Source: Sinorhizobium saheli (GTDB taxonomy: Bacteria > Pseudomonadota > Alphaproteobacteria > Rhizobiales > Rhizobiaceae). Taken from it: a stretch of 64,000 nucleotides of DNA. Positions 26,411-54,636 of the stretch are shown here, piece by piece. A model generated the notes under the pieces. It saw nothing but the letters and a program-made list of their open reading frames with translations, was not told where the DNA came from and searched no databases. The position numbers were made by a program, and so were the translations under genes. Each line of letters begins with the position of its first letter. The first letter of the stretch is position 1. The stretch covers positions 62,001 through 126,000 of the forward strand of contig NZ_LNQB01000070.1 in NCBI RefSeq assembly GCF_001651875.1, in the 5' to 3' direction.

Positions 26411-26654
26411 CTGCGTTAATTATGAAGCGGGGGCGGCAAAGTCAATCGACGGACTGCGACACCGCGGCCATCGATTACGGCAGGGAGGGAAATTCCTACT
26501 CCGAACGGGTGAGCAGACTCCCCTGCCCGCCGCGTGCTAAAAATGACCGTTTGCAGCCGAGCGCCGCCTGGGGGCAGCGTCGCGCTAAAACTGTCTTGAT
26601 CGTTCACGTTCGGGGTGCCGGACTTTCCAGGCCGGTATCGTCGTGGAGGGTGCG

Positions 26655-33266: not shown

Positions 33267-33473
33267 CCGCGTTCGAGGCAATACTTGCTCATCGCGACGC
33301 ACTATGGTCGCAGGCGTCGCAAACAGTAAAGCGGAGGGCACGTTCCGCTGTCACATTCCTGATGCGGGGAGCGAAGAGCCCATGAAGAAATGGCGCAAGG
33401 GGGCGATGAAGAGCCTTCCGAAGACGCAAGCGGCCGCAACAGGGCTCCCAGCCGAGAAGGGGAAAGGTTGTTC

Positions 33474-36076: not shown

Positions 36077-37096
36077 ATGTCCGCCGTCTCCAATGCCCTC
36101 TCCGATCTCCTTGCCCAAAAGGGCGTCCTGCTTGCCGACGGCGCCACCGGCACCTCGCTTTTCGCCATGGGGCTCGAAGCGGGTGAGGCGCCGGAGCTCT
36201 GGAACGAAACGAAGCCGGAGAACATCACCAAGCTGCATCAGGATTTCGTCGATGCCGGCGCCGATATCATTCTCACCAACTCCTTCGGCGGCACGCGCCA
36301 CCGGCTGAAGCTGCACCAGGCCGAGGATCGTGTGCACGCACTGAACAAGCGCGCCGCCGAGATCGCCCGGGCCGTCGCCGACAAAGCGCCGCGCAAGGTC
36401 ATTACCGCCGGCTCCGTCGGCCCGACCGGGGAGCTGCTGGTGCCGCTCGGCGCGCTTTCCTATGAGGATGCGGTATCGGCTTTCGCCGAGCAGATCGAGG
36501 GCCTGAAGGCCGGCGGCGCGGAGATCGCCTGGATCGAGACGATGTCCTCGCCTGAGGAGATCCGCGCGGCCGCGGAAGCCGCAACGAAGGTCGGCCTTCC
36601 CTTCGTCTATACCGGCTCGTTCGATACCGCCGGCAAGACGATGATGGGTCTCCACCCGAAGGACATCCACGGCGTCGCTGCCGACATCGGCGAAGGGCCG
36701 GTCGCGGTCGGGGCCAATTGCGGCGTCGGAGCCTCGGACATCCTCTCCTCGCTCCTCGACATGACGGCGGCCAAGCCGGACGCGGCCATCGTCGTCAAGG
36801 GCAATTGCGGCATTCCCGAATTCCGCGGCTCGGAGATTCATTATTCCGGCACGCCGCCGCTGATGGCGGAATATGCGCGCTTGGCCGTCGATGCCGGCGC
36901 CAAGATCATCGGCGGCTGCTGCGGCACCTCCTGCAACCACCTCGCGGCGATGCGGCTTGCACTCGACAACCACAGCAAGCGCGAGCGTCCGACGCTTGAC
37001 GTGATCGTCGAGAAGATCGGCCCCTTGCGCAACAAGACGGCCAACGAGGCGGCCGCCGCGCCGGCGCGCGAGCGTGGCGGCCGCCGCCGCGCCTGA
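36077..37096 (+). CDS. bmt: betaine-homocysteine S-methyltransferase
   Basis: This 339-residue zinc-dependent TIM-barrel methyltransferase transfers a methyl group from a betaine to homocysteine, giving methionine and dimethylglycine. The zinc cysteines are in AVGANCGVGASDI and in KIIGGCCGTSCNHLAAM. The opening VLLADGATGTSLFAMGLEAG and NSFGGTRHRLKLH match BHMT-like proteins. The ATG at 36077 is chosen over an upstream frame that crosses the operator. A basic RGGRRRA tail ends it, and a terminator follows. Confidence 0.92.
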   Translation: MSAVSNALSDLLAQKGVLLADGATGTSLFAMGLEAGEAPELWNETKPENITKLHQDFVDAGADIILTNSFGGTRHRLKLHQAEDRVHALNKRAAEIARAVADKAPRKVITAGSVGPTGELLVPLGALSYEDAVSAFAEQIEGLKAGGAEIAWIETMSSPEEIRAAAEAATKVGLPFVYTGSFDTAGKTMMGLHPKDIHGVAADIGEGPVAVGANCGVGASDILSSLLDMTAAKPDAAIVVKGNCGIPEFRGSEIHYSGTPPLMAEYARLAVDAGAKIIGGCCGTSCNHLAAMRLALDNHSKRERPTLDVIVEKIGPLRNKTANEAAAAPARERGGRRRA

Positions 37097-41384: not shown

Positions 41385-42089
41385 TCAAAGACCAAGCGCC
41401 GCCATATGGAAACGCAGTTGCTCTCTCGGATAGCGAAAGTCTCGGCCGATGGGACAGGCATCGCGGGATAGGCAGCCATCTGCAAGACAGCCGGCCGCCC
41501 CGGACTTCGTCCTCACATGCGTGCGGCACCGCCCCACGTCGAACATACCGGTCCCCAAGGCATTCACCGGACAGGCAGAAATGCACGGCTTGCCGATACA
41601 GTCGTCGCAAGGATGGCCGGCTCTAACGGAGCTCGTTTGCGGCAAGGCCCTGTCAAAGCCGAGCGCGCCGCGGTAGCCGTGCCACAGCCCATACCGTGGG
41701 TGGATCAATATGCCGAGTGGAGAAGCCTTCAAGCCTTCGGCGCGTATCGCCCATTGTTGGAAGGGCTGCCAGGGCGGATCGGAGGGAAAATAGCTCGTGG
41801 CGCCGGCGGCCTCCGCCACCGGCAGGATCACCTGCTTCGACCAATTGTCGAGGGGATCGGAGCCGCCGCGATCCGGCGTGCCTGCGCGCCAGCGCGTGAG
41901 CGGCTCCCAGATCGAGCCGCCGATATTGCCGATGAGCACGACGCTTGCCGCGGGCGCGCCACTCGCCAGCCGGGGCGCCGCCTCCCCCGGCTCGAAATCC
42001 ACCGTGCCGCGCAAAAAAAGTCCGCGCGGCTCGAGAGCCGCACGGATTGTTTCGATCAGATTGTCGACGCAAGCGGGGGCTGCCGTCAT
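41385..42089 (-). CDS. ferredoxin-like [4Fe-4S] protein
   Basis: The protein has 234 residues. Residues 1-150 form a domain I cannot name (ASVVLIGNIGGSIWEPLTRW; SYFPSDPPWQPFQQWA). The C-terminus carries a cysteine-rich region (CDDCIGKPCISACPVNAL, then CRTHV, CLADGCLSRDACPIG) consistent with one or two [4Fe-4S] clusters. The layout recalls the iron-sulfur half of QueG or reductive-activation proteins. The ATG at 42089 overlaps the end of an in-frame extension of mttB (ATGA). Immediate linkage suggests an electron-transfer role with the corrinoid system (inference). Confidence 0.8.
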   Translation of the reverse strand: MTAAPACVDNLIETIRAALEPRGLFLRGTVDFEPGEAAPRLASGAPAASVVLIGNIGGSIWEPLTRWRAGTPDRGGSDPLDNWSKQVILPVAEAAGATSYFPSDPPWQPFQQWAIRAEGLKASPLGILIHPRYGLWHGYRGALGFDRALPQTSSVRAGHPCDDCIGKPCISACPVNALGTGMFDVGRCRTHVRTKSGAAGCLADGCLSRDACPIGRDFRYPREQLRFHMAALGL

Positions 42090-42196: not shown

Positions 42197-43771
42197 TCAG
42201 GTGAAGGCGTCCGGCATCGAGTCCTTGCGCTTGGCGATGTACTCCTTCAGCGCCTCGTCGATCGCCGGATCGAGGTAAGGCGCCTCGTAATGCTCCAGCC
42301 AGGAACGGGCGAGCGCATTGGCGCGTTGCTCGATCCGCTTCTCGCCTTCCACCTCCCACTGCTCGAAGGAGTTGTTGTCGGCAAGCGGCGAGCGGTAGAA
42401 GGCCGTCTGGAAGTTCGCCTGCGTGTGGGCGCAGCCGAGGTAATGGCTGCCCGGGCCGACTTCGCGGATCGCCTCGAGCGCCTGGGCGTTCTCCGACAGA
42501 TCGACGCCTTCGGCCATCTTCTGCATCATGCCGAGCTGGTCCTGGTCGATCATGAACTTCTCGTAGGACGAGACGAGACCGCCTTCCAGCCAGCCGGCCG
42601 CATGCAGCACGAAATTGGTGCCGGCAAGCAGCGTCATGTTCAGCGTGTTCGCCGATTCGTGCGCGGCTTGCGCATCCGGGACCTTGGAGCCGCAGAGCGA
42701 GCCGCCGGTACGGAACGGCAGGCCGAGGCGGCGGGCGAGCTGCGCCGCGCCGTAGGAGACGAGCGACGGCTCAGGCGTGCCGAAGGTCGGGGCGCCCGAC
42801 TGCATCGAAATCGACGCGGCGAAGGTGCCGAAGAGCACCGGCGCACCCTTGCGGATGAGCTGCGTGAAGGAAGCACCGGCCAGCACCTCGGCCAGGATCT
42901 GCGTCAGCGTGCCGACAACCGTCACGGGACTCATGGCGCCCGAAAGGATGAAGGGAGAGACCACGCAGGCCTGGTTATGGCGGGCATAGACCTTGGCCGC
43001 GCCAAGCATCGTCTCGTCAAAGACCATCGGCGAGTTGGCGTTGATGAGGTTCAGCGTCACCGTGTTGTTTTCGACGAAATCGTCGCCGAACAGGATCTTC
43101 GCCATGGCGACCGTGTCTTCGGCGCGCTCCGGCGCGGTGACCGACCCCATGAAGGGTTTGTCGGAATAGCGGATATGGCTGTAGACCATATCGAGATGGC
43201 GCTTGTTGACGGGGACGTCGACCGGCTCGCACACCGTTCCGCCGGAAGAGTGAATCGACGGCGCCATATAGGCGAGCTTCACGAAACTGCGGAAGTCCTC
43301 GATCGTGGCATAGCGGCGGTTGCCTTCGAGATCGCGCACGAAGGGCGGGCCGTACACCGGTGCGAAGACCGTTGCCTTGCCGCCGATCTGGGCGTTGCGC
43401 TCGGGATTGCGCGCATGCCAGGTGAACTCCTTGGGCGCCGTCTTCAGAAGCTCGCGGCAAAGTCCCTTCGGGAAATGCACGCGCTCACCGCGCACGTCGG
43501 CGCCGGCGGCCTTCCAGAGTTCGAGCGCTTCCGCGTCGTCGCGAAACTCGATGCCGATCTCCTCGAGAATTCTATCGGCATTGCGCTCGATGAGCTGCAG
43601 GCCCTCCTCGTCGAGCACTTCATACTCGCGAATCTTGCGCTGGATATAGGGCAGAGACGGCCCCGGGCCGCCACCGGTGCGGGATGCGCGTCGCGCTGCC
43701 GCTCCCCGTCCCTCGCCACGCGCGCGGCGTCCGCCGCCTTCGACCGCGCCTCGTTCTGTCACGTCGCTCAT
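42197..43771 (-). CDS. mttB: MttB-family corrinoid methyltransferase (non-pyrrolysine; betaine type)
   Basis: This 524-residue member of the trimethylamine methyltransferase family is probably a glycine or proline betaine methyltransferase. Family blocks include GKATVFAPVYGPPFVRDLEG, the SIHSSGGTVCEP segment and GAPTFGTPEPSLVSYGAAQL. The frame has no internal amber codon, so the pyrrolysine of true MttB is absent, as in the MtgB-type enzymes described from anaerobes. The N-terminus is an unusual basic GGGRRARGEGRGAAARRA tail. The ATG at 43771 follows GAGGAA. It is divergent from the corrinoid protein gene. A 36-codon in-frame, protein-like stretch follows the TGA. Confidence 0.9.
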   Translation of the reverse strand: MSDVTERGAVEGGGRRARGEGRGAAARRASRTGGGPGPSLPYIQRKIREYEVLDEEGLQLIERNADRILEEIGIEFRDDAEALELWKAAGADVRGERVHFPKGLCRELLKTAPKEFTWHARNPERNAQIGGKATVFAPVYGPPFVRDLEGNRRYATIEDFRSFVKLAYMAPSIHSSGGTVCEPVDVPVNKRHLDMVYSHIRYSDKPFMGSVTAPERAEDTVAMAKILFGDDFVENNTVTLNLINANSPMVFDETMLGAAKVYARHNQACVVSPFILSGAMSPVTVVGTLTQILAEVLAGASFTQLIRKGAPVLFGTFAASISMQSGAPTFGTPEPSLVSYGAAQLARRLGLPFRTGGSLCGSKVPDAQAAHESANTLNMTLLAGTNFVLHAAGWLEGGLVSSYEKFMIDQDQLGMMQKMAEGVDLSENAQALEAIREVGPGSHYLGCAHTQANFQTAFYRSPLADNNSFEQWEVEGEKRIEQRANALARSWLEHYEAPYLDPAIDEALKEYIAKRKDSMPDAFT

Positions 43772-44269
43772 TCGCTCGCTTCCTCTCCCGCAGCACCCGA
43801 GAGGGGCGCAGCATATTTTACCAGGATGGGCGCATAGTCCTTTCCGGAGGTCAAATCCAGTGGTCGGCACCATGCGCCCGGTGTCGATTGGGCCTAATGC
43901 TACCAAGCCGCCGGACCGGTACGGGTCTCAATGCGCCAACGGGTGGCGCATCTCAGACACTCGGCCAGCGCCGGATGAGGAGGCGCACGGTGCCCGCCAC
44001 GGCCGCCAGGATCGGAAGTTCCGGCGGACATAACATCTTGAACTGTTGCATAAATTTACCGGAGCCGGATTCCGGCCCGGGGAAATATGCGCTAGGACTA
44101 TAAAGAGGGAGAGATTGAGCAGGGGCGCCGTCGTTTTTCATTACATGCGACGTCGCTTTCAAAAAGAGATTTTCGGGCGACGCCCGTTAAGGATGGGAAA
44201 CGCGTCCGGATTGCGCGCCTGTTGGCCATCCGAGCGAAACGACCATGCCAGGAACCGAGGAAACCTACT
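43772..44269. other. divergent promoter region between mttB and the corrinoid gene
   Basis: This 498-bp gap should hold both promoters. It contains a stem TGCGCCA/TGGCGCA (43932-43938 with 43944-43950) and a shorter one around 44060-44082. I see no convincing regulator site shared with the bmt promoter and no supported gene. Confidence 0.5.
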
Positions 44270-44965
44270 ATGGCAGATGATGAAATCATTCTCGAGGACC
44301 TTTCCGACGAGGAACTCGTGCAGCAGATGCATGACGACCTTTATGACGGTCTCAAGGAGGAAATCGAGGATGGTACGCGTATCCTCCTCGAGCGCGGCTG
44401 GACGCCTTACGACATCCTAACCAAAGCTCTCGTCGAAGGCATGCGCATCGTCGGCATCGACTTCCGCGACGGCATCCTCTTCGTGCCCGAAGTGCTGCTT
44501 TCCGCGAACGCGATGAAGGCAGGCATGTCGATCCTGCGCCCGCTGCTCGCCGAAACCGGGGCGCCGAAGCTCGGCAAGATGGTGATCGGCACCGTCAAGG
44601 GCGACATCCACGACATCGGCAAGAATCTCGTCGGCATGATGATGGAGGGCGCGGGCTTCGATGTCGTCGACCTCGGCATCAACAACCCGGTCGAGAACTA
44701 CATCGAGGCACTCGAGCGTGAGCAGCCCGATATCCTCGGCATGTCGGCGCTGCTGACGACGACCATGCCCTATATGAAGGTCGTCATCGACACGATGAAG
44801 GAGAAGGGCCTGCGCGACGATTACGTCGTGCTCGTCGGCGGTGCGCCGCTCAACGAGGAATTCGGCAAGGCGGTCGGCGCCGATGCCTACTGCCGTGATG
44901 CTGCCGTGGCCGTCGAAACCGCCAAGGACTTCATGAAGCGCAGGCATAACCAGCTTGCCGGCTGA
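44270..44965 (+). CDS. corrinoid (methyl-carrier) protein of the MttB system
   Basis: This 231-residue protein has an N-terminal helical cap (about 1-90, ILLERGWTPYDILTKALVEG) and a C-terminal Rossmann B12-binding domain. The base-off cobalt-ligand histidine is in GTVKGDIHDIGKNLVGMMME, with SALLTTTMPYMK and VLVGGAPLNEEFG as further cofactor contacts. It should accept the methyl group from the MttB-like enzyme on cob(I)alamin and give it to the folate methyltransferase at 50 kb. It is divergent from mttB and ends in a strong terminator. Confidence 0.93.
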   Translation: MADDEIILEDLSDEELVQQMHDDLYDGLKEEIEDGTRILLERGWTPYDILTKALVEGMRIVGIDFRDGILFVPEVLLSANAMKAGMSILRPLLAETGAPKLGKMVIGTVKGDIHDIGKNLVGMMMEGAGFDVVDLGINNPVENYIEALEREQPDILGMSALLTTTMPYMKVVIDTMKEKGLRDDYVVLVGGAPLNEEFGKAVGADAYCRDAAVAVETAKDFMKRRHNQLAG

Positions 44966-44985
44966 GGCTGAACCCTCGGGAAAAC

Positions 44986-45025
44986 AAAGCCGGCTGCACG
45001 GGTGAAAACGGCAGCCGGCTTTCCT
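44986..45025 (+). terminator. rho-independent terminator after the corrinoid gene
   Basis: The stem AGCCGGCTGC/GCAGCCGGCT (44988-44997 with 45011-45020) is followed by TTCCTATTT, and AAA precedes it. On the minus strand it also ends the entericidin-like gene, so it is bidirectional. Confidence 0.8.
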
Positions 45026-45057
45026 ATTTATGCGCAGAGGGAGCCGCGCAAGGGCCC

Positions 45058-45222
45058 TCAGTTTGCCGATTTGGCGACCCGGTGACCGGCCGATTGCGTC
45101 GCATTGACGGCATTTGCAGTGTCCTGCCCCATGCCGCGGATCGTGTTTGCGCAGGAACTGAACGTCGTCAGCGCCATCAGGACAGCGCCGATCGCCGCGA
45201 GAGTCTTTGTTCTCATGACCAT
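45058..45222 (-). CDS. entericidin A/B-family small lipoprotein
   Basis: This 54-residue frame starts MVMRTKTLAAIGAVLMALTT. A lipobox ends in SSC, and the mature tail NTIRGMGQDTANAVNATQSA is the EcnA/EcnB pattern. Its lipid-modified cysteine would anchor it in the membrane. GGAAGGA lies just upstream of the ATG at 45222, and the ATG at 45216 is an alternative start. It is encoded against the corrinoid operon and shares its terminator. Entericidins act in stress-linked lysis and antidote pairs in enterobacteria, but the rhizobial role is unknown. Confidence 0.8.
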   Translation of the reverse strand: MVMRTKTLAAIGAVLMALTTFSSCANTIRGMGQDTANAVNATQSAGHRVAKSAN

Positions 45223-45255
45223 GATTCCTTCCTATTGCTGCAAGGCGGAATAAAG

Positions 45256-45876
45256 ATGGAAAATGCATCGCCGGCAAGAGAACGTGCACAACCGAAGAAA
45301 GTTCACGTCATTGGTTGCGGCGCGATCGCGCGCGAAATTCTCGCCGTCTGCGAAGCCAACGGGCTCGACCACATCGACCTCGAATGCCTGCCCGCCATCT
45401 GGCACAACACGCCGGAGAAAATCGTGCCGGGCCTGCGCGAGGCGATCGCGCGAGCGCGGGCGGAAGGTTGCGAGCGCATCTTCATCGCCTACGCCGACTG
45501 CGGCACCGGCGGGCTGATCGACCGGCTGTGCGCGGAGGAAGGCGTCTCCCGCATTCCCGGCCCGCATTGCTACTCCTTCTTCGCCGGCAACGCTGATTTC
45601 GCCAAGCGCTGGGACGACGATATCACCGCCTTTTTCCTGACCGATTTCCTCGCCCGCCAGTTCGAGGCCTTTGTCATCGAGCCGCTCGGCCTCAACCGGC
45701 ATCCGGAGTTGCGCGACATGTATTTCGGCCACTACCGCAAGCTCGTCTATCTTTCGCAACAGGAGGACGGAGCGCTGCAGGAGAAGGCCCGCCGCGCCGC
45801 CGACTATCTCGGCCTCGAATACGAGTATCGCTACACCGGCTACGGCGACCTCACCCGGTCGCTGACCGAAACGTAA
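45256..45876 (+). CDS. DUF1638 domain-containing protein
   Basis: This 206-residue cytosolic protein opens KVHVIGCGAIAREILAVCEA. It contains the motif RIFIAYADCGTGGLIDRLCA, and a later cysteine-histidine segment (IPGPHCYSFFAG) could bind a cofactor. DUF1638 proteins are repeatedly found near corrinoid methyltransferases, but I know of no assigned activity. The cysteines C14-region, C95-region and C-H pair could suit metal or corrinoid handling (inference). The ATG at 45256 follows GGAATAAAG. It stands between the corrinoid gene and a formyltransferase. Confidence 0.8.
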   Translation: MENASPARERAQPKKVHVIGCGAIAREILAVCEANGLDHIDLECLPAIWHNTPEKIVPGLREAIARARAEGCERIFIAYADCGTGGLIDRLCAEEGVSRIPGPHCYSFFAGNADFAKRWDDDITAFFLTDFLARQFEAFVIEPLGLNRHPELRDMYFGHYRKLVYLSQQEDGALQEKARRAADYLGLEYEYRYTGYGDLTRSLTET

Positions 45877-46037
45877 TCGATCGAAAGACCGTCGCGGTCA
45901 GACGCCTTCGCGCGCCACGCACCCCGCAAAACGACCTTCTTAAGCGGACGGTAACATGTGATGCCGCATATCTGGCGCCGCCGCTGCGAGCAGTTGCCTC
46001 GAATGTAAATCAAATAGATACGCCAAGTTTATCGCGC

Positions 46038-46853
46038 ATGGATCGAGCTTTTCCCGGGGCTGATGAAAAGGTGAAAGCAGGCGTATCGGCCGGCGGACGC
46101 ATCGTCGTGGTCACAGCCGGCGGCGACAATCCGAACATCATGATCAACGCCCTTGCTGGCCGGTTCGACGACGTCGTCGTGCTTCAGGAGGAGCCGGAAT
46201 CGAAGGCGCTCTTCGTCAAGCGCCGCGCCCGCAGGCTCGGATGGCCGACCGCCTTGGGCCAGCTTGCGACGATGATCGTCTCGCGCTTCGGCAAGCGCGT
46301 CACGCGCCGGCGAGCGGCCGAGATCCTGGTTAAATACGGCGCATCCGTCGAACTCGATCCGTCGATCCCTATCCGCCGCATCGGCTCGATCAACGATCGC
46401 GAAGGCCGCGCACAATTGCAGGCACTTCAGCCCGCGGTCGTCTTCCTGATCAGTTGCCGCATGCTGGCGTCGAAAACGCTCGCCGCGATCCCCTGCCCGG
46501 TCCTCAATTTTCATGCCGGCATCAACCCGCAATATCGCGGGCTGATGGGCGGCTACTGGGCGCTCGTCAACAACGACCTCGAAAACTTTGGCGCGACGGT
46601 GCATCTCGTCGACGAAGGCGTCGATACCGGCGCGACCCTCTATCAGGCCCGGCAGACCCCGACTTCCGCCGACACGATGCATACCTATCCGCTCCTCCAG
46701 ACGGCGGCCTCGACCGGCATCGCGATCAGGGCCGTCGAGGATGCGCTCGCCGGAAATCTGCACCCCGTCGCCAGCGCGGCACCCTCTCGGCAATGGTATC
46801 ACCCGACCCTGTGGACCTGGCTTTGGAACGGCCTGCGGCGCGGGATCTGGTAG
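46038..46853 (+). CDS. formyltransferase-family protein
   Basis: This 271-residue protein has a Rossmann-like formyltransferase core. LISCRMLASKTLAAIPCP is followed by the hallmark VLNFHAGINPQYRGLMGGYW with the catalytic asparagine and histidine, and by GATVHLVDEGVDTGATLYQ with the aspartate of the N-H-D triad. It would use 10-formyl-THF to formylate an amino group, perhaps on a sugar or another metabolite. It lacks the C-terminal tRNA-binding domain of Fmt. Its position in the folate/corrinoid region suggests a link to one-carbon metabolism (inference). Confidence 0.82.
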   Translation: MDRAFPGADEKVKAGVSAGGRIVVVTAGGDNPNIMINALAGRFDDVVVLQEEPESKALFVKRRARRLGWPTALGQLATMIVSRFGKRVTRRRAAEILVKYGASVELDPSIPIRRIGSINDREGRAQLQALQPAVVFLISCRMLASKTLAAIPCPVLNFHAGINPQYRGLMGGYWALVNNDLENFGATVHLVDEGVDTGATLYQARQTPTSADTMHTYPLLQTAASTGIAIRAVEDALAGNLHPVASAAPSRQWYHPTLWTWLWNGLRRGIW

Positions 46854-46926
46854 ACGGGTTTGATCTTGAACGGGGAATAAAGACGGCGCGGTCGGCGTCA
46901 TATCCAATCCACGATTGAAGAAAGCC

Positions 46927-47109
46927 ATGACCTACAGAGCGTCCGCGGTTATGGCCCTGATTGCGCTTCTGACGATCTCCGGATGCATGAGCAATCAGGC
47001 CAGCCAGAAGAATACCGCCCCTCCTCCCCCGAGCAGTTCCGGCAGCGCCGGTGCTTCCGGCGGCGGCATGGGCGGCGGCAGCCAGGGTGGCGGCAGTTCC
47101 GGCTATTGA
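46927..47109 (+). CDS. small glycine/serine-rich lipoprotein
   Basis: The product has about 60 residues, with a lipoprotein signal (MTYRASAVMALIALLTISGC) and a mature part that is a low-complexity tail (PPPPSSSGSAGASGGGMGGG). The ATG at 46927 or an upstream TTG at 46915 may start it. It follows the formyltransferase by 73 bp. A hairpin (GGCTGCCCG/CGGGCAGCC, 47142-47169) separates it from the convergent BA14K gene. Function is unknown. Confidence 0.65.
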   Translation: MTYRASAVMALIALLTISGCMSNQASQKNTAPPPPSSSGSAGASGGGMGGGSQGGGSSGY

Positions 47110-47141
47110 TGCGCGCATTCACCCGGGCTTTGCATGTCGAA

Positions 47142-47169
47142 GGCTGCCCGGCGCGACGCGCGGGCAGCC
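47142..47169. terminator. hairpin between convergent genes
   Basis: The stem GGCTGCCCG/CGGGCAGCC (47142-47150 with 47161-47169) lies between the convergent lipoprotein and BA14K genes. There is no strong T-run, so it is a likely but not certain bidirectional terminator. Confidence 0.5.
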
Positions 47170-47178
47170 CGGGACCTC

Positions 47179-47655
47179 TCAATAGTAAGGTGAATAGCAC
47201 TGCTCCCTGGGACCGCCATAGGGCTGGAAGGAGTTGTCCCAGGCGCGGTACGAGCGATAGCGATTGTAGCACCAGCTCACATGGCGCGGCGGCAGTCTCG
47301 ACGCACCGTAACGGGGCGCCGCGTAGCGCGGCGCAGGAGGCGCCGCGAGCGCCCCACCGATCGCGAGGCCGGCGCCGAAGGCCGCCAGCGGATACCACCA
47401 GCCGTCGCTATGCCTGCGGTAACCGTGCCGGTGGGAGCGGTAGCCGCGATATCCATTGTAGTAGCTGTAGCGATGGCCCTCATCTCCACGCCAGCGACGC
47501 GGCGGACCGCCCTGATGCCAGGGCTTATGGTGAACCAGTTCCACGCTCGAACCAGGCTGTGACGCCAAGGCCGGCGGAACAGGCATGGCTTGTGCCGGCG
47601 CCAGACCCGTGAACGCCGTCGCTGCCGCAATAAACAGAATGCCGAACTTCTTCAT
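47179..47655 (-). CDS. BA14K-family secreted protein
   Basis: This 158-residue protein has a signal peptide ([19 protein letters not shown], cleavage near AQA). It has a Tyr/Arg/His-rich mature region ([20 protein letters not shown]), a hydrophobic [18 protein letters not shown] segment, and the BA14K-type end [20 protein letters not shown]. The family was first noted as a Brucella immunoreactive protein and is common in rhizobia, where its envelope role is unclear. A GTG two codons upstream is an alternative start. Confidence 0.85.
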
Positions 47656-47973
47656 TTCCACACCTATCTGTTACGATAGACGCAGCTTTGCTCGAACCAT
47701 CTGAACCGGCAGTGAATGCCAATATCATGATGTTCTAATCCAAAGGAAAAGCCTCCCGGCAATCCGGCCGGTGCGCTCCCCCGCCACCTGGAGCGGTGAA
47801 GGCAATCGTCGCCCTCTTCGCGTCCATGCTAGGAGGGCGCCGGGGAAGGCCGCGCAAGTGTCCGGACGCGTCGCTGTGCAGCGTCGTTTTTGGACATATC
47901 CGACGTCGTGGCAAGGTGAGCCACGAGACCCGGACATGCGCATTGTCCCCTCTTGAGGAGAACAGGAATCCCC
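47656..47973. other. divergent promoter region, no gene seen
   Basis: This 318-bp gap lies between BA14K (minus) and the small folate-operon leader gene (plus). It contains an AT-rich stretch near 47720-47745 that suits a promoter, and a GAGGAG ribosome-binding site just before 47974. No gene or clear operator is supported. Confidence 0.45.
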
Positions 47974-48276
47974 ATGGCAGACCGCATCATCGTCTACTGG
48001 CGCGACATCCCCGCGCAGGTCATCATCAAACAGGGCCGAAAGAGCGCCAAACGCGAGTTGTCGCTGCGCTTTACCGAGGCGATCGACATGTGCGCGATGC
48101 GCACCGGCGCGGCCGAGACCGACGACTACCTCGCAGAATGGCGCAAGGCCGACCCGGTCCCGGTCTCCGACGATCTCGAAGCGGAGGCCGACAAGGCGGC
48201 GGCCGAACTGGAGGCCGCCTACGACAAGGAGCGGCTCGTGGCCCTCGTCAAGTCCGGAGGACGCGACAATGTCTGA
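47974..48276 (+). CDS. small 'virulence factor' domain protein of the MTHFR operon
   Basis: This 100-residue protein opens MADRIIVYWRDIPAQVIIKQ and contains DAYLAEWRK-type sequence (DDYLAEWRKADPVPV), matching the misnamed virulence-factor family PF13769. In alphaproteobacteria it is encoded beside the two MTHFR genes. No catalytic residues are obvious. GAGGAG precedes the ATG. It overlaps the next gene by eight bases, so the three genes are translated together. It may be a subunit or assembly factor for the reductase (inference). Confidence 0.8.
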   Translation: MADRIIVYWRDIPAQVIIKQGRKSAKRELSLRFTEAIDMCAMRTGAAETDDYLAEWRKADPVPVSDDLEAEADKAAAELEAAYDKERLVALVKSGGRDNV

Positions 48277-48853
48277 TCCCAAGGTCGTCACCGGCAACGC
48301 CCAGCCCGCCAAGAAGGCGGCAACAGGCGCCTACACCCCTGCAAACGTTTCGCCGAGCCGCCGCGCGCGCCACAAATACACCGTGCGGCTCTGGGCCGTG
48401 CGGAATTCACGGTTCCTCGAATGGTTCTACAACCGTTTCGCCGACTTGTTCCTGACACTCCATCCGCTGTGGAACGCCCTCGGCTACAATCGTGTCGAGC
48501 GGCCGGTCACTTTCATCGAACGCCACGTGAAGGGTTTTCTCTTCGACTGTCGCATGTGCGGCCAGTGCGCGCTCTCGTCGACGGGCATGTCCTGCCCGAT
48601 GAACTGCCCGAAACAGCTGCGCAATGGCCCCTGCGGCGGCGTCCGCGCCAACGGCCATTGCGAGGTCGAACCGGACATGCCCTGCGTCTGGGTACAGGCG
48701 TGGAAGGGTTCGCAAAACATGGTGAAGGGTGATGCTATCATGAACGTGCAGAAGCCGGTCAATCAGTCGCTGCGCGAAACGTCCTCCTGGCTGCGTGTGA
48801 CGGCGGAAGCCGCGGCTCGTCGTGATGCCGCTCGGAAGGAAACCCAGCGATGA
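48269..48853 (+). CDS. MTHFR C-terminal domain protein (MetV-like)
   Basis: This 194-residue protein belongs to the MTHFR_C (PF12225) type. Its cysteine cluster FDCRMCGQCALSSTGMSCPM, then NCPKQLRNGPCGGVRANGHC, can bind an iron-sulfur cluster, as in MetV of acetogens. In those organisms MetV forms a complex with MetF and passes electrons to or from it. It overlaps the MetF gene by four bases. The basic Arg/Lys ends are unstructured. Its presence suggests electrons from methyl-THF oxidation are handed to an iron-sulfur carrier rather than only to NAD. Confidence 0.85.
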   Translation: MSDPKVVTGNAQPAKKAATGAYTPANVSPSRRARHKYTVRLWAVRNSRFLEWFYNRFADLFLTLHPLWNALGYNRVERPVTFIERHVKGFLFDCRMCGQCALSSTGMSCPMNCPKQLRNGPCGGVRANGHCEVEPDMPCVWVQAWKGSQNMVKGDAIMNVQKPVNQSLRETSSWLRVTAEAAARRDAARKETQR

Positions 48854-49941
48854 GCCCGGATATCAACCCTCTCGACCCGAGCGCACCGCTCGACCCGTTG
48901 CCCGGCCATACGTCGCGAGGCCGGCTGGAGCGCGTGCTCCGCCGCGGTGAGTTTGCGGTCACCGCCGAGCTCAACCCGCCGGACAGCGCCAATCCGCAGG
49001 ACGTTTACGAGCGCGCAGCGATCTTCGACGGCTGGGTCGACGGCATCAATGCGGTCGATGCTTCGGGTGCCAACTGCCACATGTCGTCCGTCGGCATCTG
49101 CGCGCTCCTGACCCGCATGGGCTATGCGCCGATCATGCAGATCGCCTGCCGCGACAAGAACCGCATCGCCATCCAGGGAGACGTGCTCGGCGCCTCGGCC
49201 ATGGGCGTTCAGAACATCATGTGCCTGACCGGCGACGGCGTGCAGGCCGGCGACCAGCCGGGCGCCAAGCCGGTATTCGACCTCGACTGCATGTCGCTGC
49301 TCGAGACCGTCAGGATCATGCGGGACAACTCGAAGTTCCTCTCCGGCCGCAAGCTGACGACGCCGCCGCAGGTCTTCCTCGGCGCGGCCATCAACCCATT
49401 CGCGCCGCCCTACGACTTCCGGCCCTATCGTCTGGCCAAGAAGATCGAGGCCGGAGCGCAGTTCGTCCAGAGCCAATATTGCTTCGATGTGCCTATGTTC
49501 CGGGAATACATGAAGAAGGTGCGCGACCTCGGCCTGCATGAGAAATGCTTCATCCTTGTCGGCGTCGGGCCGATGGCATCGGCCAAGACCGCCCGCTGGA
49601 TCCGTTCCAACGTGCCGGGCATCCATATTCCCGACAGCGTCATCAAGCGGCTCGAAGGCGCCCAGGACCAGAAAGAGGAAGGCAAGCAGCTCTGCATCGA
49701 CATCATCAACGAGGTGAAGGAGATCGAGGGCGTTTCCGGCGTTCACGTCATGGCCTATCGCCAGGAGGAATATGTGGCGGAAATCGTCCATGAATCAGGC
49801 GTCCTGAAGGGCCGCAGGCCATGGAAACCGGAAACCACGCCGACCGACGCGCTCGTCGCCGAGCGGCTGGAGCACCTGCGCGAGGGCGTTGAGGAAAATC
49901 AGCAGCAGATGGCCGAAGCCGCGGCGCATCACCCGCATTGA
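48850..49941 (+). CDS. methylenetetrahydrofolate reductase (MetF-type)
   Basis: This 363-residue TIM-barrel flavoprotein interconverts methyl-THF and methylene-THF. Family blocks are RGEFAVTAELNPPDSANPQD, the folate/FAD region QNIMCLTGDGVQAGDQPG, and the carboxylate/arginine segment ESDNSKFL-like (RDNSKFLSGRK). It is longer than E. coli MetF. In this operon it probably oxidises methyl-THF produced from a betaine. It starts inside the MetV-like gene (ATGA) and is followed after 137 bp by the folate methyltransferase. Confidence 0.9.
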   Translation: MSPDINPLDPSAPLDPLPGHTSRGRLERVLRRGEFAVTAELNPPDSANPQDVYERAAIFDGWVDGINAVDASGANCHMSSVGICALLTRMGYAPIMQIACRDKNRIAIQGDVLGASAMGVQNIMCLTGDGVQAGDQPGAKPVFDLDCMSLLETVRIMRDNSKFLSGRKLTTPPQVFLGAAINPFAPPYDFRPYRLAKKIEAGAQFVQSQYCFDVPMFREYMKKVRDLGLHEKCFILVGVGPMASAKTARWIRSNVPGIHIPDSVIKRLEGAQDQKEEGKQLCIDIINEVKEIEGVSGVHVMAYRQEEYVAEIVHESGVLKGRRPWKPETTPTDALVAERLEHLREGVEENQQQMAEAAAHHPH

Positions 49942-50077
49942 GCCTGCAGGAGGGACGCGGCAATCGCGTCCTTCCGATAGTAAAGAGAAAAACCGGCGCC
50001 CCGGACCGTCCAGCGTCTTACAAACAGGAACCGGGCCTGTTACATGGCCCCACGCTTCAAGGATCAAAGGATCTTCC

Positions 50078-51040
50078 ATGACCCGCACCATCGTCGCCTC
50101 CGCCACCCGCGAGATCGTCATCGGCTTCGACCAACCCTTCTGCGTCATCGGTGAGCGCATCAACCCGACCGGGCGCAAGAAGCTCGCCGCCGAAATGATC
50201 GAAGGCAACTTCGAAACGGTCATCAAGGATGCACTGGAGCAGGTCGCGGCCGGCGCGACGATGCTGGACGTCAATGCGGGTGTGACGGCTGTCAACCCGA
50301 ACGAGACCGAGCCGCCGCTGCTGGTCAAGACGCTTGAGATCGTACAGGGCCTCGTCGACGTGCCGCTGTCGATCGATAGCTCCGTGACGGCCGCGATCGA
50401 AGCCGGGCTGCGCGTCGCCAAGGGGCGCCCGCTCGTTAACTCGGTCACCGGCGAAGAGGAAAAACTCGAGGCGATCCTGCCGCTCGTCAAGAAATACGAT
50501 GTGCCGGTGGTGGCGATCTCCAACGACGAGACCGGCATCTCGATGGACCCGGACGTGCGCTTCGCCGTCGCCAAGAAGATTGTCGAGCGCGCCATGGATC
50601 ACGGGATCAAGCCGCACGACATCGTCGTCGACCCGCTCGTCATGCCGATCGGCGCGCTCGGCGATGCGGGCCGGCAGGTCTTCGCGCTGCTGCGTCGCCT
50701 GCGCGAAGAGCTGAAGGTGAACACCACCTGCGGCCTTTCCAACATTTCGTTTGGCCTGCCGCACCGCCACGGCATCAATGCCGGCTTCATCCCGATGGTG
50801 ATCGGCGCCGGCATGACCTCGGCGATCATGAACCCCTGCCGCCCGCAGGAAATGGAAGCCGTGCGCGCTGCGAACGTCCTGAACGGCACCGATGCGAACT
50901 GCACCAACTGGATCATGACCTATCGCGACCACAAGCCGGCCGAAGGCGGCCATGCCGTAGCCGCTGCGGCTCCGGCCGCCGGCGGTGGACGCCGCGGTGG
51001 GCGTGCGGCCCGAGCCGGCGCTGGCGCAAGAGCGGAATAA
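50078..51040 (+). CDS. methyltetrahydrofolate:corrinoid methyltransferase
   Basis: This 320-residue pterin-binding barrel of the AcsE/MetH (DHPS-like) type has a pterin motif GERINPTGRKKLAAEM, ATMLDVNAGVTAVNPNET and VDVPLSIDSS, with asparagine/aspartate residues contacting the folate. It should transfer the methyl from methylcob(III)alamin on the corrinoid protein to THF (or the reverse). The C-terminus is a disordered AAPAAGGGRRGGRAARAG tail resembling that of MttB here. The ATG at 50078 is used; the frame is open upstream without family sequence. Confidence 0.9.
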   Translation: MTRTIVASATREIVIGFDQPFCVIGERINPTGRKKLAAEMIEGNFETVIKDALEQVAAGATMLDVNAGVTAVNPNETEPPLLVKTLEIVQGLVDVPLSIDSSVTAAIEAGLRVAKGRPLVNSVTGEEEKLEAILPLVKKYDVPVVAISNDETGISMDPDVRFAVAKKIVERAMDHGIKPHDIVVDPLVMPIGALGDAGRQVFALLRRLREELKVNTTCGLSNISFGLPHRHGINAGFIPMVIGAGMTSAIMNPCRPQEMEAVRAANVLNGTDANCTNWIMTYRDHKPAEGGHAVAAAAPAAGGGRRGGRAARAGAGARAE

Positions 51041-51059
51041 GGTTGTTGCCAAACTGCAC

Positions 51060-51380
51060 TTGAAAGGGAGAAAGACGACGAGAAGCCAACTGCGCCTCTT
51101 TGCCGTCCTTCTCCCTTTGGTCATCATCGCCAGGTATACGCTGTTTGACGGTGCGGCGGAGTTTCAACGATTCTACGCAGCTCTCCGGACCTCTCTTTTG
51201 CCGGTCCTGTTCATAACCGCTGCCGTACTTGCGGTCATATTGGTCGCCACCGTTACGAAGAAAGTCGACCTCGGACCCAAGGAACGGGTCATCGACATTT
51301 GCTTCTGGGGCAGCTCGGCCGTGTTGGCAGCAGCCGTCGCTTATGCATTTGCCGTCGTGAAGCTTGCCGGGACGCCGTAA
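51060..51380 (+). CDS. small membrane protein of unknown function
   Basis: The frame has three hydrophobic helices (LFAVLLPLVIIARYTLF; LPVLFITAAVLAVILVATV; AVLAAAVAYAFAVVKLA). The start is unclear. A TTG near 51060 would avoid overlap with the methyltransferase gene, whereas an ATG at 50985 would overlap its end by 56 bp. It lies between the folate methyltransferase and the activator gene. I cannot name a family, and position suggests a role with them only weakly. Confidence 0.5.
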   Translation: MKGRKTTRSQLRLFAVLLPLVIIARYTLFDGAAEFQRFYAALRTSLLPVLFITAAVLAVILVATVTKKVDLGPKERVIDICFWGSSAVLAAAVAYAFAVVKLAGTP

Positions 51381-51428
51381 AATCGGACTTCGGCGCCGCC
51401 ATCGGCACCGTAAGAGTGGAGAGCGCCC

Positions 51429-51770
51429 ATGATGCCACGCCGTCTTCGACTGGACACTGCGACGCTCTTGTTCGAAGCCCCTTTCGTAATCGCGCTACGG
51501 CTGCAGGAAATGCAGATGGCCGTGCTCACGGGCAAGACGCAGGACGTGGCCGAACTTTACCGCATGATCTTCGAAAAGGTTGCGGCCACGGCCGATAGTG
51601 TCGCCGCCGTCAACGTCGCGCTCTGGAAGGCCTCTTTCGACAACTCGATGCGGCTGATGATGGGCGGCCAGCCGTCCGATCACGGAACGGCGATTGCGTC
51701 GGCCGCACTCAGGCCGTATGGCAAGCGAGTGCGCAGCAACGCCCGCCGTCTGTCGCGCAAGAAAGTCTGA
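51429..51770 (+). CDS. hypothetical protein (113 aa)
   Basis: This is a small, mostly helical basic protein (LRLDTATLLFEAPFVIALRL; VAATADSVAAVNVALWKASF) with a lysine/arginine end. It vaguely resembles phasin-like helical proteins but has no clear signature. GTGGAGAG precedes the ATG. It lies between the membrane protein and the corrinoid activator gene on the same strand, and function is unknown. Confidence 0.55.
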   Translation: MMPRRLRLDTATLLFEAPFVIALRLQEMQMAVLTGKTQDVAELYRMIFEKVAATADSVAAVNVALWKASFDNSMRLMMGGQPSDHGTAIASAALRPYGKRVRSNARRLSRKKV

Positions 51771-51929
51771 CCTTCGTCGCGCCCGCAGGAAGTGCCCCCT
51801 GGGAAATGATGCTCGCAGATCGTTCGATGTCGGGATTGGACAACTATCCGGCACCGTTCCGGTGCAGTCTGAGTCCGTTTACCCGTGCTTCGCTGTCAAA
51901 ATGAAGCGGACCTGACGAGAGACTTGAGC

Positions 51930-54005
51930 ATGCGCATCGATAGCACCTCCGAGATCGAGACCAATATGACTGAAGTCACGCAGAAGGATCCCCTGGTGCT
52001 TTTCATGCCGTCGGGAAAGCGCGGGCGCTTCCCGGTCGGCACACCGATCCTCGACGCTGCGCGTTCGCTCGGGGTCTATGTCGAGAGCGTCTGCGGCGGA
52101 CGTGCGACTTGCGGACGCTGCCAGGTCTCCGTGCAGGAAGGCAATTTCGCCAAGCATAAGATCGTCTCGTCGAACGAGCACATCTCGCCGGTCGGACCGA
52201 AGGAGCAGCGCTACGCGAGCGTGCGCGAGCTCCCGGACGGCCGCCGCCTGTCCTGTTCGGCGCAGATCCTCGGCGATCTCGTCATCGACGTGCCGCAGGA
52301 CACCGTCATCAATGCCCAGGTGGTGCGAAAGGCCGCGACGGACCGCGCGATCGAGCGCAATGCCGCCGTCCAGATGTGCTATGTCGAGGTCGACGAACCG
52401 GACATGCATAAGCCGCTCGGCGATCTCGACCGGCTGAAAGCTGTTCTGGAGAAGGACTGGGGCTGGAAGGACCTGCTGATCGCGCCGCACCTCATTCCGC
52501 AGGTGCAAGGCATCCTGCGCAAGGGTAACTGGGCGGTTACCGCGGCGATCCACCGGGACATGGATTCCTCCCGTCCCTTCATCGTCGGCCTCTCGCCGGG
52601 GCTGAAGAACGAGGCCTATGGCGTCGCCTGCGACATCGGCTCGACGACGATCGCCATGCACCTGGTGTCGCTCCTCTCCGGCCGCATCGTCGCCTCCTCC
52701 GGAGCATCGAACCCGCAGATCCGCTTCGGCGAGGATCTGATGAGCCGCGTCTCCTACGTGATGATGAACCCGGACGGCCGCGAGGCAATGACCAAGGCGG
52801 TGCGCGAGGCGGTGAACGGACTGATCGGCAAGGTTTGCGCCGAAGGCGGGGTCGACCGCCACGACATCCTCGACATGGTGGTCGTCGGCAACCCGATCAT
52901 GCACCATCTGTTCCTCGGCATCGACCCGACGGAACTCGGCCAGGCGCCCTTCGCGCTCGCCGTATCGGGTGCCCTGCAATATTGGGCGCATGAGGTCGAC
53001 ATAGAGGTCAATCGCGGGGCGAGGCTCTATATGCTGCCGTGCATCGCCGGCCATGTCGGCGCCGACGCCGCCGGCGCAACCCTCTCGGAAGGGCCGCACC
53101 GACAGGACAAGATGATGCTGCTCGTCGATGTCGGCACCAATGCCGAAATCGTGCTCGGCAATCGCCAACGTGTCGTCGCCGCCTCCTCGCCGACGGGACC
53201 GGCCTTCGAAGGCGCGGAGATCTCCTCCGGCCAGCGCGCCGCCCCCGGAGCGATCGAGCGCGTGCGCATCGACCCGGAAACGCTGGAACCGCGCTTCCGC
53301 GTCATCGGCGTCGACAAATGGTCGGACGAAGAGGGATTTGCGGAAGCCGCCGCTGCGACCGGCGTCACCGGCATCTGCGGCTCGGCGATCATCGAAGTCG
53401 TCGCCGAGATGTACCTGACCGGCATCATTTCGCAGGACGGCGTCGTCGATGGCGCGATGGCAGCAAGGAGCCGGCGCGTCATTTCCAACGGCCGCACCTT
53501 CTCCTACCTGCTGCATGACGGAGAACCGCGCATCACGGTGACGCAGAACGATATCCGGGCGATCCAGCTCGCCAAGGCCGCGCTTTATGCCGGTATCAAG
53601 CTCTTGATGGAAAAGCAGGGCGTCGAGCACGTCGACACGATCCGCTTTGCCGGCGCCTTCGGCTCCTTCATCGACCCGAAATACGCGATGGTGCTCGGCC
53701 TCATCCCGGATTGCGACCTTACCGAGGTGAAGGCGGTCGGCAACGCCGCCGGCACCGGCGCGCTGATGGCACTCCTCAACCGCGGCCACCGCCGCGAGAT
53801 CGAGGAAACCGTTAGAAAAATCGAGAAGATAGAGACAGCTCTTGAATCGAAGTTTCAGGAGCACTTCGTCAACGCCATGGCGATGCCGAACAAGGTCGAC
53901 GCCTTCCCGAAGCTCGCCGAGGTGGTCAGCCTGCCCGAGCGCAAGGTGCTCACCGACGACGGCAGCGAAGGCGGGGGCCGCAGGAGGCGCAGGAGCCGGG
54001 AGTGA
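51930..54005 (+). CDS. corrinoid activation protein, [2Fe-2S]/ASKHA (DUF4445 type)
   Basis: The protein has 691 residues. An N-terminal plant-type [2Fe-2S] domain has CX5CX2C in VCGGRATCGRCQVS, and a later cysteine in GRRLSCSAQIL. A linker is followed by an ASKHA ATPase-like domain (GVACDIGSTTIAMHLVSLL and MMLLVDVGTNAEIVLGN) and a RACo-like end (RFAGAFGSFIDPKYAMVLG). Such proteins reduce inactivated cob(II)alamin back to cob(I)alamin with ATP. The ATG at 51930 or 51966 may start it. A charged RRRRRSRE tail ends it. It should reactivate the corrinoid protein at 44 kb. Confidence 0.9.
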   Translation: MRIDSTSEIETNMTEVTQKDPLVLFMPSGKRGRFPVGTPILDAARSLGVYVESVCGGRATCGRCQVSVQEGNFAKHKIVSSNEHISPVGPKEQRYASVRELPDGRRLSCSAQILGDLVIDVPQDTVINAQVVRKAATDRAIERNAAVQMCYVEVDEPDMHKPLGDLDRLKAVLEKDWGWKDLLIAPHLIPQVQGILRKGNWAVTAAIHRDMDSSRPFIVGLSPGLKNEAYGVACDIGSTTIAMHLVSLLSGRIVASSGASNPQIRFGEDLMSRVSYVMMNPDGREAMTKAVREAVNGLIGKVCAEGGVDRHDILDMVVVGNPIMHHLFLGIDPTELGQAPFALAVSGALQYWAHEVDIEVNRGARLYMLPCIAGHVGADAAGATLSEGPHRQDKMMLLVDVGTNAEIVLGNRQRVVAASSPTGPAFEGAEISSGQRAAPGAIERVRIDPETLEPRFRVIGVDKWSDEEGFAEAAAATGVTGICGSAIIEVVAEMYLTGIISQDGVVDGAMAARSRRVISNGRTFSYLLHDGEPRITVTQNDIRAIQLAKAALYAGIKLLMEKQGVEHVDTIRFAGAFGSFIDPKYAMVLGLIPDCDLTEVKAVGNAAGTGALMALLNRGHRREIEETVRKIEKIETALESKFQEHFVNAMAMPNKVDAFPKLAEVVSLPERKVLTDDGSEGGGRRRRRSRE

Positions 54006-54533: not shown

Positions 54534-54636
54534 GCAACCTCCTCATGAAACAAACTTGCATTTGCTGCCGCAGAATACAGCGCAATTTTCGTGACTGATG
54601 CAATATATCTTCGCCAGCTCTTGCACGAGGTGGGTC

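What the first reader, a model, noticed from the sequence alone, without database searches (positions are those of the whole stretch)
42197..54005. Aerobic corrinoid-dependent betaine demethylation island
The sequence holds, nearly contiguously, a non-pyrrolysine MttB methyltransferase, a corrinoid protein with GDIHDIGKN, MetV-like and MetF-like reductases, an MTHF:corrinoid methyltransferase and a [2Fe-2S]/ASKHA activator. In anaerobes (MtgB-type systems in Desulfitobacterium, MtpB in Eubacterium) this set moves a methyl from a quaternary amine to folate. Finding the whole chain in a probable aerobic rhizobium, beside a full aerobic B12 pathway, a betaine transporter and bmt, suggests a little-described aerobic route from betaine to methylene-THF.
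Basis: partly seen in the sequence, partly recalled or inferred. Interest (0 to 1): 0.75.

Follow-up and report, generated by a model that had tools for sequence, protein, structure and literature searches.

The report
Aerobic betaine demethylation genes in Sinorhizobium
A root-nodule-type bacterium carries a known vitamin B12-dependent gene set for stripping a methyl group off betaine in air, and beside it sits a small, wrongly named 'virulence factor' gene that appears to be an overlooked working part of that machinery.

Summary
Window 42197-54005 holds a non-pyrrolysine MttB, a free-standing corrinoid protein, DUF1638, MetV- and MetF-like proteins, a methyl-THF:corrinoid methyltransferase and a [2Fe-2S]/ASKHA activator; bmt and cobalamin genes lie near. 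The genome is a Sinorhizobium. The pathway is no longer little described: Mausz et al. 2025 (PMC12478193) showed by mutants that mtgC and mtgD serve both betaine growth and methionine synthesis in Ruegeria pomeroyi, and named the S. meliloti locus. So this is an ortholog of a known system; its exact betaine is unproven.

The new part is PF13769 ('Virulence_fact'), a 100-aa protein at 47974-48276. It tracks free-standing MtgC closely: 26 and 26 genomes, 25 shared, of 142 Alphaproteobacteria; 28 and 29, 28 shared, of 299 Pseudomonadota. At 66 of 74 fetched loci another gene of the system lies within about 1.5 kb. On one Terrarubrum plasmid it is fused to the activator itself. 'Virulence' is absent from the main texts of the two key papers, and 'PF13769' from the held library. 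I propose that it belongs to the corrinoid-reactivation module (inferred, testable).

The parts
42197..43771 (-). mtgB: MttB-superfamily methyltransferase without pyrrolysine, 524 aa
   Evidence: PF06253 775.6 bits; very close to PDB 4yyc, 44% identical to D. hafniense MtgB 9yce
41385..42089 (-). 234-aa protein with eight invariant cysteines (two [4Fe-4S] expected), 107 bases downstream of mtgB; annotated 'ferredoxin' in S. meliloti; role open
   Evidence: found in 76 of 80 rhizobial loci, estimated gap to mtgB 78-132 bases in 73 of those 76; invariant Cys in 22 rows; no Pfam match; association loose in the class sample. Likeness to QueG is recalled, not a tool result
44270..44965 (+). mtgC: free-standing corrinoid protein, 231 aa
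   Evidence: PF02310 + PF02607, GDIHDIGKN; 79 of 80 loci
45256..45876 (+). DUF1638 protein; its P. inhibens homolog is needed for methionine synthesis by published fitness data
   Evidence: PF07796 94.7 bits; invariant C21, C44, C82, C105 in 46 rows; PMC5764234 passages
46038..46853 (+). formyl-transferase-like protein, variable companion
   Evidence: PF00551; 51 of 80 loci
47974..48276 (+). PF13769 'Virulence_fact' protein, 100 aa, candidate overlooked component
   Evidence: PF13769 94.8 bits; 76 of 80 rhizobial loci; co-occurs with MtgC; fused to RACo in L187
48269..48853 (+). MetV-like protein, overlaps the PF13769 gene by 8 bases
   Evidence: PF12225 97.1 bits
48850..49941 (+). MetF-like methylene-THF reductase, expected to oxidise methyl-THF
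   Evidence: PF02219 118.8 bits; best NCBIfam match is the reductase half of PRK08645, below its cut-off
50078..51040 (+). mtgD: methyl-THF:corrinoid methyltransferase
   Evidence: NF005719 401 bits over cut-off 259; PF00809
51429..51770 (+). phasin-like small protein, variable companion
   Evidence: NF045536 52 bits, below cut-off 100; 32 of 80 loci
51966..54005 (+). RACo/RamA-type corrinoid activator: [2Fe-2S] plus ASKHA
   Evidence: PF00111, PF17650, PF17651, PF14574; CGGRATCGRC
36077..37096 (+). bmt / mtgE: homocysteine S-methyltransferase module
   Evidence: NF005718 578.7 bits, PF02574; 70 of 80 loci
32145..33266 (+). glycine-betaine-type ABC transporter substrate-binding protein
   Evidence: PF04069 183.9 bits; 37 of 80 loci
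33390..34520 (+). ProV-type ABC transporter ATPase
   Evidence: TIGR01186 344.8 bits, cut-off 326.6; 52 of 80 loci

Best explanation
This is the Sinorhizobium version of the aerobic MtgBCDE system. MtgB (MttB) takes a methyl group from a betaine, most likely glycine betaine, and gives it to Co(I) of the corrinoid protein MtgC. MtgD passes it to tetrahydrofolate, and MetV/MetF oxidise methyl-THF to methylene-THF for C1 metabolism. In reverse, methyl-THF, MtgD and MtgC can feed MtgE (bmt) to make methionine. When MtgC slips to Co(II), the RACo activator re-reduces it with help from DUF1638 and, I propose, from the PF13769 protein, which acts beside RACo on MtgC. Shown here: anatomy, synteny, co-occurrence, the fusion. 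Shown elsewhere on homologs: need for mtgC and mtgD for betaine growth and for methionine; need for RamA and DUF1638 for methionine. Inferred: the substrate in this strain, the direction of MetV/MetF, the role of PF13769.
For: Complete gene set with curated-model support. Same order of the core genes in S. meliloti Ak57. Published mutants and proteomics for the R. pomeroyi homologs and explicit mention of the S. meliloti locus (PMC12478193, parts 1-4 of 6 read). Published fitness for RamA and DUF1638 (PMC5764234, passages). Betaine-transport genes nearby. For PF13769: co-occurrence with MtgC in 142 genomes (25 both, 1 + 1 single, 115 neither) and in 299 (28 both, 0 + 1 single, 270 neither); all 26 class genomes with it have RACo and MTTB; within 120 bases of DUF1638, match edge to match edge, in 16 of the 23 class genomes with both (positions); 66 of 74 fetched loci have another gene of the system within about 1.5 kb (24 of 26, 23 of 24, 19 of 24; recounted); one 760-aa PF13769-Fer2-RACo protein; stays near mtgD when MetV/MetF are absent or replaced (16 rhizobial loci).
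Against: A full-length MetH is also present, so the methionine role may be minor here. The four kept pocket residues do not discriminate substrates, and the fifth predicted pocket residue (aromatic in D. hafniense MtgB) is Gly here. Three curated models (two MtgC, one pyrrolysine MttB) are not reached. PF13769 is missing from G235, which has MtgC and DUF1638, and from four class genomes with RACo (G071, G077, G081, G125). The Fisher values are not corrected for kinship, operon co-inheritance can inflate them, and 21 of the 24 loci come from two families. The fusion is one sequence. PF13769 occurs in the B. subtilis control, where RACo, MTTB and DUF1638 do not match, and five of the 24 loci show no neighbour of the system. 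No fold match was found for its model.
Confidence: 0.78

Rival explanations
1. Same chemistry, other substrate: the window MtgB acts mainly on another quaternary amine (proline betaine, carnitine, choline or the like), and glycine betaine is handled by another MttB paralog.
For: Three paralogs in the genome. The C102 paralog sits beside two FAD/GcvT enzymes that resemble dimethylglycine/sarcosine dehydrogenases (the likeness is my reading of FAD-oxidase plus GcvT matches). Pocket position 353 of D. hafniense MtgB is Gly here.
Against: The window copy is the one welded to MtgC (79 of 80 loci), with betaine-type transporter genes some 8 kb away. The C102 copy is 26% identical to the window copy and lacks three of the four docking-predicted residues, although its neighbours speak for it.
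Confidence: 0.3
2. The cluster is in the first place a second, split methionine synthase with RACo-type reactivation, and betaine demethylation is secondary in this strain.
For: MtgE, MtgC and MtgD correspond to the three pieces shown in P. inhibens, and mtgC and mtgD mutants of R. pomeroyi are methionine auxotrophs.
Against: A complete MetH is present. MtgB, MetV and MetF have no obvious place in methionine synthesis from methyl-THF. In the class sample 16 of 26 PF13769 genomes show no MetH-sized hit, but this one does.
Confidence: 0.2
3. PF13769 is only a hitch-hiker in the operon with an unrelated role.
For: The family also occurs in the B. subtilis control, which lacks RACo, MTTB and DUF1638 matches; no structure or function is known to the tools.
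Against: It moves with the system to different places (beside DUF1638, beside mtgD, beside RACo), is as conserved as MtgB and MtgC in rhizobia (median 90.8% against 90.2% and 91.2%), and is fused to RACo once.
Confidence: 0.25

Closest known systems
MtgBCDE of Ruegeria pomeroyi and Sinorhizobium meliloti (Mausz et al. 2025, PMC12478193)
   Same: MtgB, C, D and E, a MetF step, RamA-type activator, DUF1638, linked cobalamin genes; the paper names the S. meliloti locus, and the S. meliloti Ak57 record shows the same order of the core genes
   Different: Sister species. The MetF here comes with a MetV-like partner; the paper calls the R. pomeroyi metF2 a paralog of metF. 'Virulence', 'ferredoxin' and 'MetV' occur 0 times in its main text
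Split methionine synthase with RamA and DUF1638 of Phaeobacter inhibens (Price et al. 2018, PMC5764234)
   Same: Homologs of MtgC, MtgD, MtgE, RamA, DUF1638
   Different: Here MetH is present too, and MtgB, MetV and MetF are linked. 'Virulence' occurs 0 times in its main text
MtgABC of Desulfitobacterium hafniense (anaerobic glycine betaine demethylation)
   Same: MtgB: 44% identity, four docking-predicted residues kept
   Different: Window corrinoid protein scores below both curated MtgC cut-offs (208.7 of 370; 175 of 310); Mausz et al. also place the aerobic MtgC apart from it. MtgD was not compared with MtgA here
Chloromethane utilisation (cmu) methyl transfer of aerobic methylotrophs (recalled; kinship of MtgC with CmuA is stated in PMC12478193)
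   Same: Aerobic corrinoid methyl transfer to folate followed by a MetF-type step (recalled)
   Different: No MttB-type enzyme (recalled); not compared here by sequence

Membership tests
Aerobic MtgBCDE system (Mausz 2025) | PF06253 MtgB without pyrrolysine | tested here: met
   PF06253 775.6 bits, uninterrupted 524-aa frame
Aerobic MtgBCDE system (Mausz 2025) | Free-standing corrinoid protein MtgC | tested here: met
   PF02310, PF02607 in 231 aa
Aerobic MtgBCDE system (Mausz 2025) | Free-standing pterin-binding MtgD | tested here: met
   NF005719 over cut-off
Aerobic MtgBCDE system (Mausz 2025) | MtgE homocysteine module | tested here: met
   NF005718 over cut-off
Aerobic MtgBCDE system (Mausz 2025) | RamA/RACo activator and DUF1638 | tested here: met
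Aerobic MtgBCDE system (Mausz 2025) | Glycine betaine demethylation and methionine synthesis shown by mutants | not testable with these tools
   no experiment on this strain; shown for R. pomeroyi in the paper
Anaerobic MtgB (D. hafniense type) | Docking-predicted residues Y94, N199, R309, H345 | tested here: met
   matched by motif; the typed chain ran one residue ahead of the paper's numbering (residues from PMC6855144)
Anaerobic MtgB (D. hafniense type) | Aromatic residue at 353 | tested here: not met
   Gly in the window protein (one-residue offset)
Anaerobic MtgC | NCBIfam MtgC models over cut-off | tested here: not met
   NF047996 208.7 of 370; NF047995 175 of 310
Pyrrolysine trimethylamine methyltransferase MttB | TIGR02369 over cut-off, in-frame amber codon | tested here: not met
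   280.8 of 525 bits; no in-frame stop
PF13769 (Virulence_fact) | Pfam gathering score | tested here: met
   94.8 bits, cut-off 25

The most novel reading that the evidence does not exclude
The family annotated 'Virulence_fact' (PF13769) has, in its free-standing Pseudomonadota form, nothing to do with virulence: it is a missing subunit of the aerobic corrinoid-reactivation module (RACo + DUF1638) that serves both betaine demethylation and split methionine synthesis. It may be what lets this once-anaerobic machinery run in air, for the Methanosarcina acetivorans control matches MTTB, RACo and DUF1638 but not PF13769 (controls; one genome).
Probability: 0.55. Interest if true: 0.62.

Novelty: new member of a known kind. 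Interest (0 to 1): 0.47.

Why it matters
The pathway decides how soil and marine bacteria break down betaine, a very common osmolyte, and ties that to vitamin B12 and methionine. Corrinoid methyltransferases are easily oxidised, so how aerobes keep them active is an open question; Price et al. had no specific proposal for DUF1638. A third, wrongly named protein that travels with these reactivation genes, once as a fusion with the activator, gives a concrete handle, and a misleading 'virulence factor' label could be removed from genome annotations.

Tried and rejected
Fe-S protein at 41385-42089 as a universal component: tight in rhizobia, but in the class sample it is in 29 of 142 genomes, 18 of the 26 with PF13769 and 11 outside (at most 20 candidates a genome were scored there, so misses are possible); kept as open. 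The Fisher line for it printed used a table that I had miscounted by one and is not used. PF13769 as a MetV/MetF subunit: rejected, since in 16 rhizobial loci with PF13769 and MtgD but no MetF2 match it lies 53-109 bases from mtgD in ten, and six have gaps of about 0.9-1.0 kb; five of these six show a 289-309 aa frame there, of which the three scanned match MTHFR models weakly. Downstream Lrp, diaminopropionate ammonia-lyase and carbamoylase genes as part of the system: rejected, found in 1, 1 and 0 of 80 loci. Riboswitch control of the cluster: the only Rfam match at gathering score in the window is a cobalamin riboswitch at 26020-26421. Structure searches: the PF13769 model (pLDDT 90.7, but the other four models 66-73) had no PDB match better than E 0.35; DUF1638 model best E 0.0046 with TM about 0.3; phmmer against PDB found nothing at E 1 for PF13769 and nothing better than E 0.3 for DUF1638. 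Passages of PMC8604678 and PMC9842639 gave nothing on the pocket of the window protein. A claim that the locus is unknown: rejected by the literature.
Full report
WHAT IS THERE. In order: an Fe-S protein and mtgB on the minus strand (41385-42089, 42197-43771), then on the plus strand mtgC (44270-44965), DUF1638 (45256-45876), a formyl-transferase-like gene (46038-46853), the PF13769 gene (47974-48276), metV (48269-48853), metF (48850-49941), mtgD (50078-51040), a phasin-like gene, and the RACo activator (51966-54005). PF13769 and metV overlap by 8 bases, metV and metF by 4. bmt (36077-37096) and betaine-type transporter genes lie on one side, with eight cobalamin genes and a cobalamin riboswitch further out.

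WHOSE GENOME. MttB is 97% identical to that of Sinorhizobium kostiense and 93-96% to the other loci whose titles say Sinorhizobium or Ensifer, and matches PDB chain 4yyc over its whole length (that 4yyc is from S. meliloti is recalled). The same order of the core genes is annotated in S. meliloti Ak57, where the PF13769 gene is called 'virulence factor' and the Fe-S gene 'ferredoxin'.

IS IT MORE THAN CHANCE. Of the four loci without PF13769, two are cut short by contig ends (L062, L066) and two (L004, L013) also lack MtgD in the stretch held.

ALREADY KNOWN. Mausz et al. 2025 (PMC12478193; I read parts 1-4 of 6 and searched the main text for single terms) show by proteomics and mutants that R. 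pomeroyi MtgC and MtgD are needed both for growth on glycine betaine and for methionine synthesis, place MetF2 as the oxidising step, and say that in S. meliloti MtgBCDE, the two reactivation modules and the cobalamin operon are colocalised. Price et al. 2018 (PMC5764234, passages only) showed the split methionine synthase and the need for a RamA-like and a DUF1638 protein in P. inhibens, and called it unexplained that S. meliloti has these beside MetH. This genome too has a full MetH (1261-aa frame, 1756 bits).

SUBSTRATE. Window MtgB keeps the four residues that docking predicted for glycine betaine in D. hafniense MtgB (Creighbaum 2019, PMC6855144, passages); the fifth, an aromatic at 353, is Gly (my typed chain ran one residue ahead of the paper's numbering, so positions were matched by motif). 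The paralog on contig C96 keeps the same four and sits near a trans-3-hydroxy-L-proline dehydratase, a MocE-type ferredoxin and a ferredoxin reductase; the C102 paralog keeps only the Asn and sits beside two FAD/GcvT enzymes. So an amino-acid betaine is likely and glycine betaine the best guess, unproven.

THE OVERLOOKED PART. I searched 142 alphaproteobacterial genomes (140 genera, family labels up to f139) with seven queries. PF13769: 26 genomes. Free-standing MtgC (at least 399 bits; the next hits are at 204 or less): 26, of which 25 shared; exceptions G007 (810 contigs) and G127 (74% complete). RACo: 30, including all 26; the other four are G071, G077, G081, G125. MTTB: 30, including all 26; the four without PF13769 are G064, G071, G077, G127, of 68, 82, 95 and 74% completeness. 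DUF1638: 25, of which 23 shared. MtgD over cut-off: 25, of which 24 shared. The Fe-S protein: 29, of which 18 shared. From the frame lengths, 10 of the 26 also show a MetH-sized hit (902 aa or more) and 16 do not. In 299 Pseudomonadota genomes (at least five of them also in the first set): PF13769 28, MtgC 29 (E at most 1e-60), all 28 shared; the one exception, G235, has MtgC and DUF1638 but no PF13769 in the genome search or, by my own profile, in 20 kb around. One-sided Fisher values are 1.5e-25 and 1.6e-38; they ignore kinship and serve only as a guide.

NEIGHBOURHOOD. At 24 of 26 loci of the class sample (one of them the window itself), 23 of 24 further loci of the phylum sample (9 of them of the window's own family, 12 of family f24) and 19 of 24 loci from another class of the phylum, PF13769 has another gene of the system within about 1.5 kb (recounted). 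The misses are L101, L102; L137; and L170, L173, L181, L182, L183, the last below cut-off. The partner varies: DUF1638 within 120 bases, match edge to match edge, in 16 of 23 class genomes with both; MtgD about 1 kb away in 11 of the 12 further f24 loci; RACo directly downstream in G056, which shows no free-standing MtgD over cut-off. In G218 (the other class) the order is mtgC, DUF1638, PF13769, metV, metF, mtgD, RACo. On the Azoarcus sp. KH32C plasmid pAZKH the same seven follow one another, from DUF1638 on with touching or overlapping frames, near proV and a permease, purU, folC, an FAD/GcvT enzyme and ETF-type genes; the plasmid also has an MttB, 70% identical to the window's.

THE FUSION. 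On a Terrarubrum flagellatum plasmid, after a B12-binding protein (76% identical to the window MtgC) and a DUF1638 protein, one 760-aa gene named 'virulence factor' holds PF13769 (residues 8-92), Fer2 (116-164) and all three RACo domains; it aligns at 59% to the window PF13769 protein and 57% to the window RACo. No MtgD, MtgB, MetV or MetF match lies in the 24 kb held. A natural fusion with the activator, in this company, points to reactivation and not to MetV/MetF or MtgD. It is a single case.

WHAT PF13769 MIGHT DO. In the alignment of the rhizobial and class-sample proteins a core W-R-D-I-P-x-Q-V, R-F, A-I-D, A-M, Y-L, W-R is kept in at least 95% of rows; in the rhizobial alignment of 50 rows no Cys or His is invariant, so a metal centre of its own is unlikely. 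The model suggests strands followed by helices, with no PDB match. I infer a docking or conformational partner that helps RACo reach Co(II) on MtgC. The M. acetivorans control matches MTTB, RACo and DUF1638 but not PF13769 (controls): one genome, so only a hint that PF13769 belongs to the aerobic version. The B. subtilis control matches PF13769 and none of RACo, MTTB and DUF1638, so the family has other uses.

IN PRINT. 'PF13769' occurs in no paper of the held library; 'virulence' occurs 0 times in the main texts of Price 2018 and Mausz 2025; the combined search found no paper. Supplements, figures and subscription papers were not seen, and the gene could appear under another name, so an earlier mention cannot be excluded.

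VERDICT. Observation confirmed. Interpretation right in kind, but already published and incomplete. Worth keeping for the PF13769 lead.

Noticed in passing
L118:8483-10045 (G000 contig C96): Second MttB paralog (55% to the window copy) near a trans-3-hydroxy-L-proline dehydratase, a MocE-type ferredoxin, a ferredoxin reductase and a dapA-like gene: possibly a corrinoid route for a hydroxyproline betaine.
   Followed up: partly
L119:8797-10347 (G000 contig C102): Third MttB paralog (26%) next to two FAD/GcvT enzymes resembling dimethylglycine/sarcosine dehydrogenases; could be the actual glycine betaine enzyme or one of another subfamily.
   Followed up: partly
41385-42089: Protein with eight invariant Cys directly downstream of mtgB in rhizobia; possible electron donor, loose association elsewhere.
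   Followed up: partly
L187:11756-14038: PF13769-RACo fusion on a 230-kb Terrarubrum flagellatum plasmid with MtgC and DUF1638 upstream.
   Followed up: yes
L186:3747-19921: Seven-gene cassette of the system with betaine transporter, purU and FAD/GcvT gene on a plasmid typed as mobilizable in the betaproteobacterium Azoarcus sp. KH32C: a possible vehicle of transfer.
   Followed up: partly
G081:C60:11685-15392 and G125:C26:11193-14845: Divergent RACo beside MtgD-like and MtgC-like genes in two alphaproteobacteria without an MTTB match: probably another corrinoid methyl-transfer system.
   Followed up: no
L025, L027, L035, L075, L077 between the PF13769 gene and mtgD: MetV/MetF missing and a frame of 289-309 aa in their place; the three scanned (L027, L075, L077) match MTHFR models weakly: apparent swap of the methyl-THF oxidising step.
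   Followed up: partly
54033-57089: Lrp regulator, diaminopropionate ammonia-lyase and carbamoylase-type hydrolase; not conserved beside the system (1, 1 and 0 of 80 loci).
   Followed up: partly
26020-26421: Cobalamin riboswitch on the minus strand, in front of the cob genes.
   Followed up: no
45256-45876: The S. meliloti DUF1638 protein (SMc04333) is listed with a value of -3.60 in a table of PHB/PhaR-dependent proteins (PMC12542648, passage only, column heads not seen).
   Followed up: no
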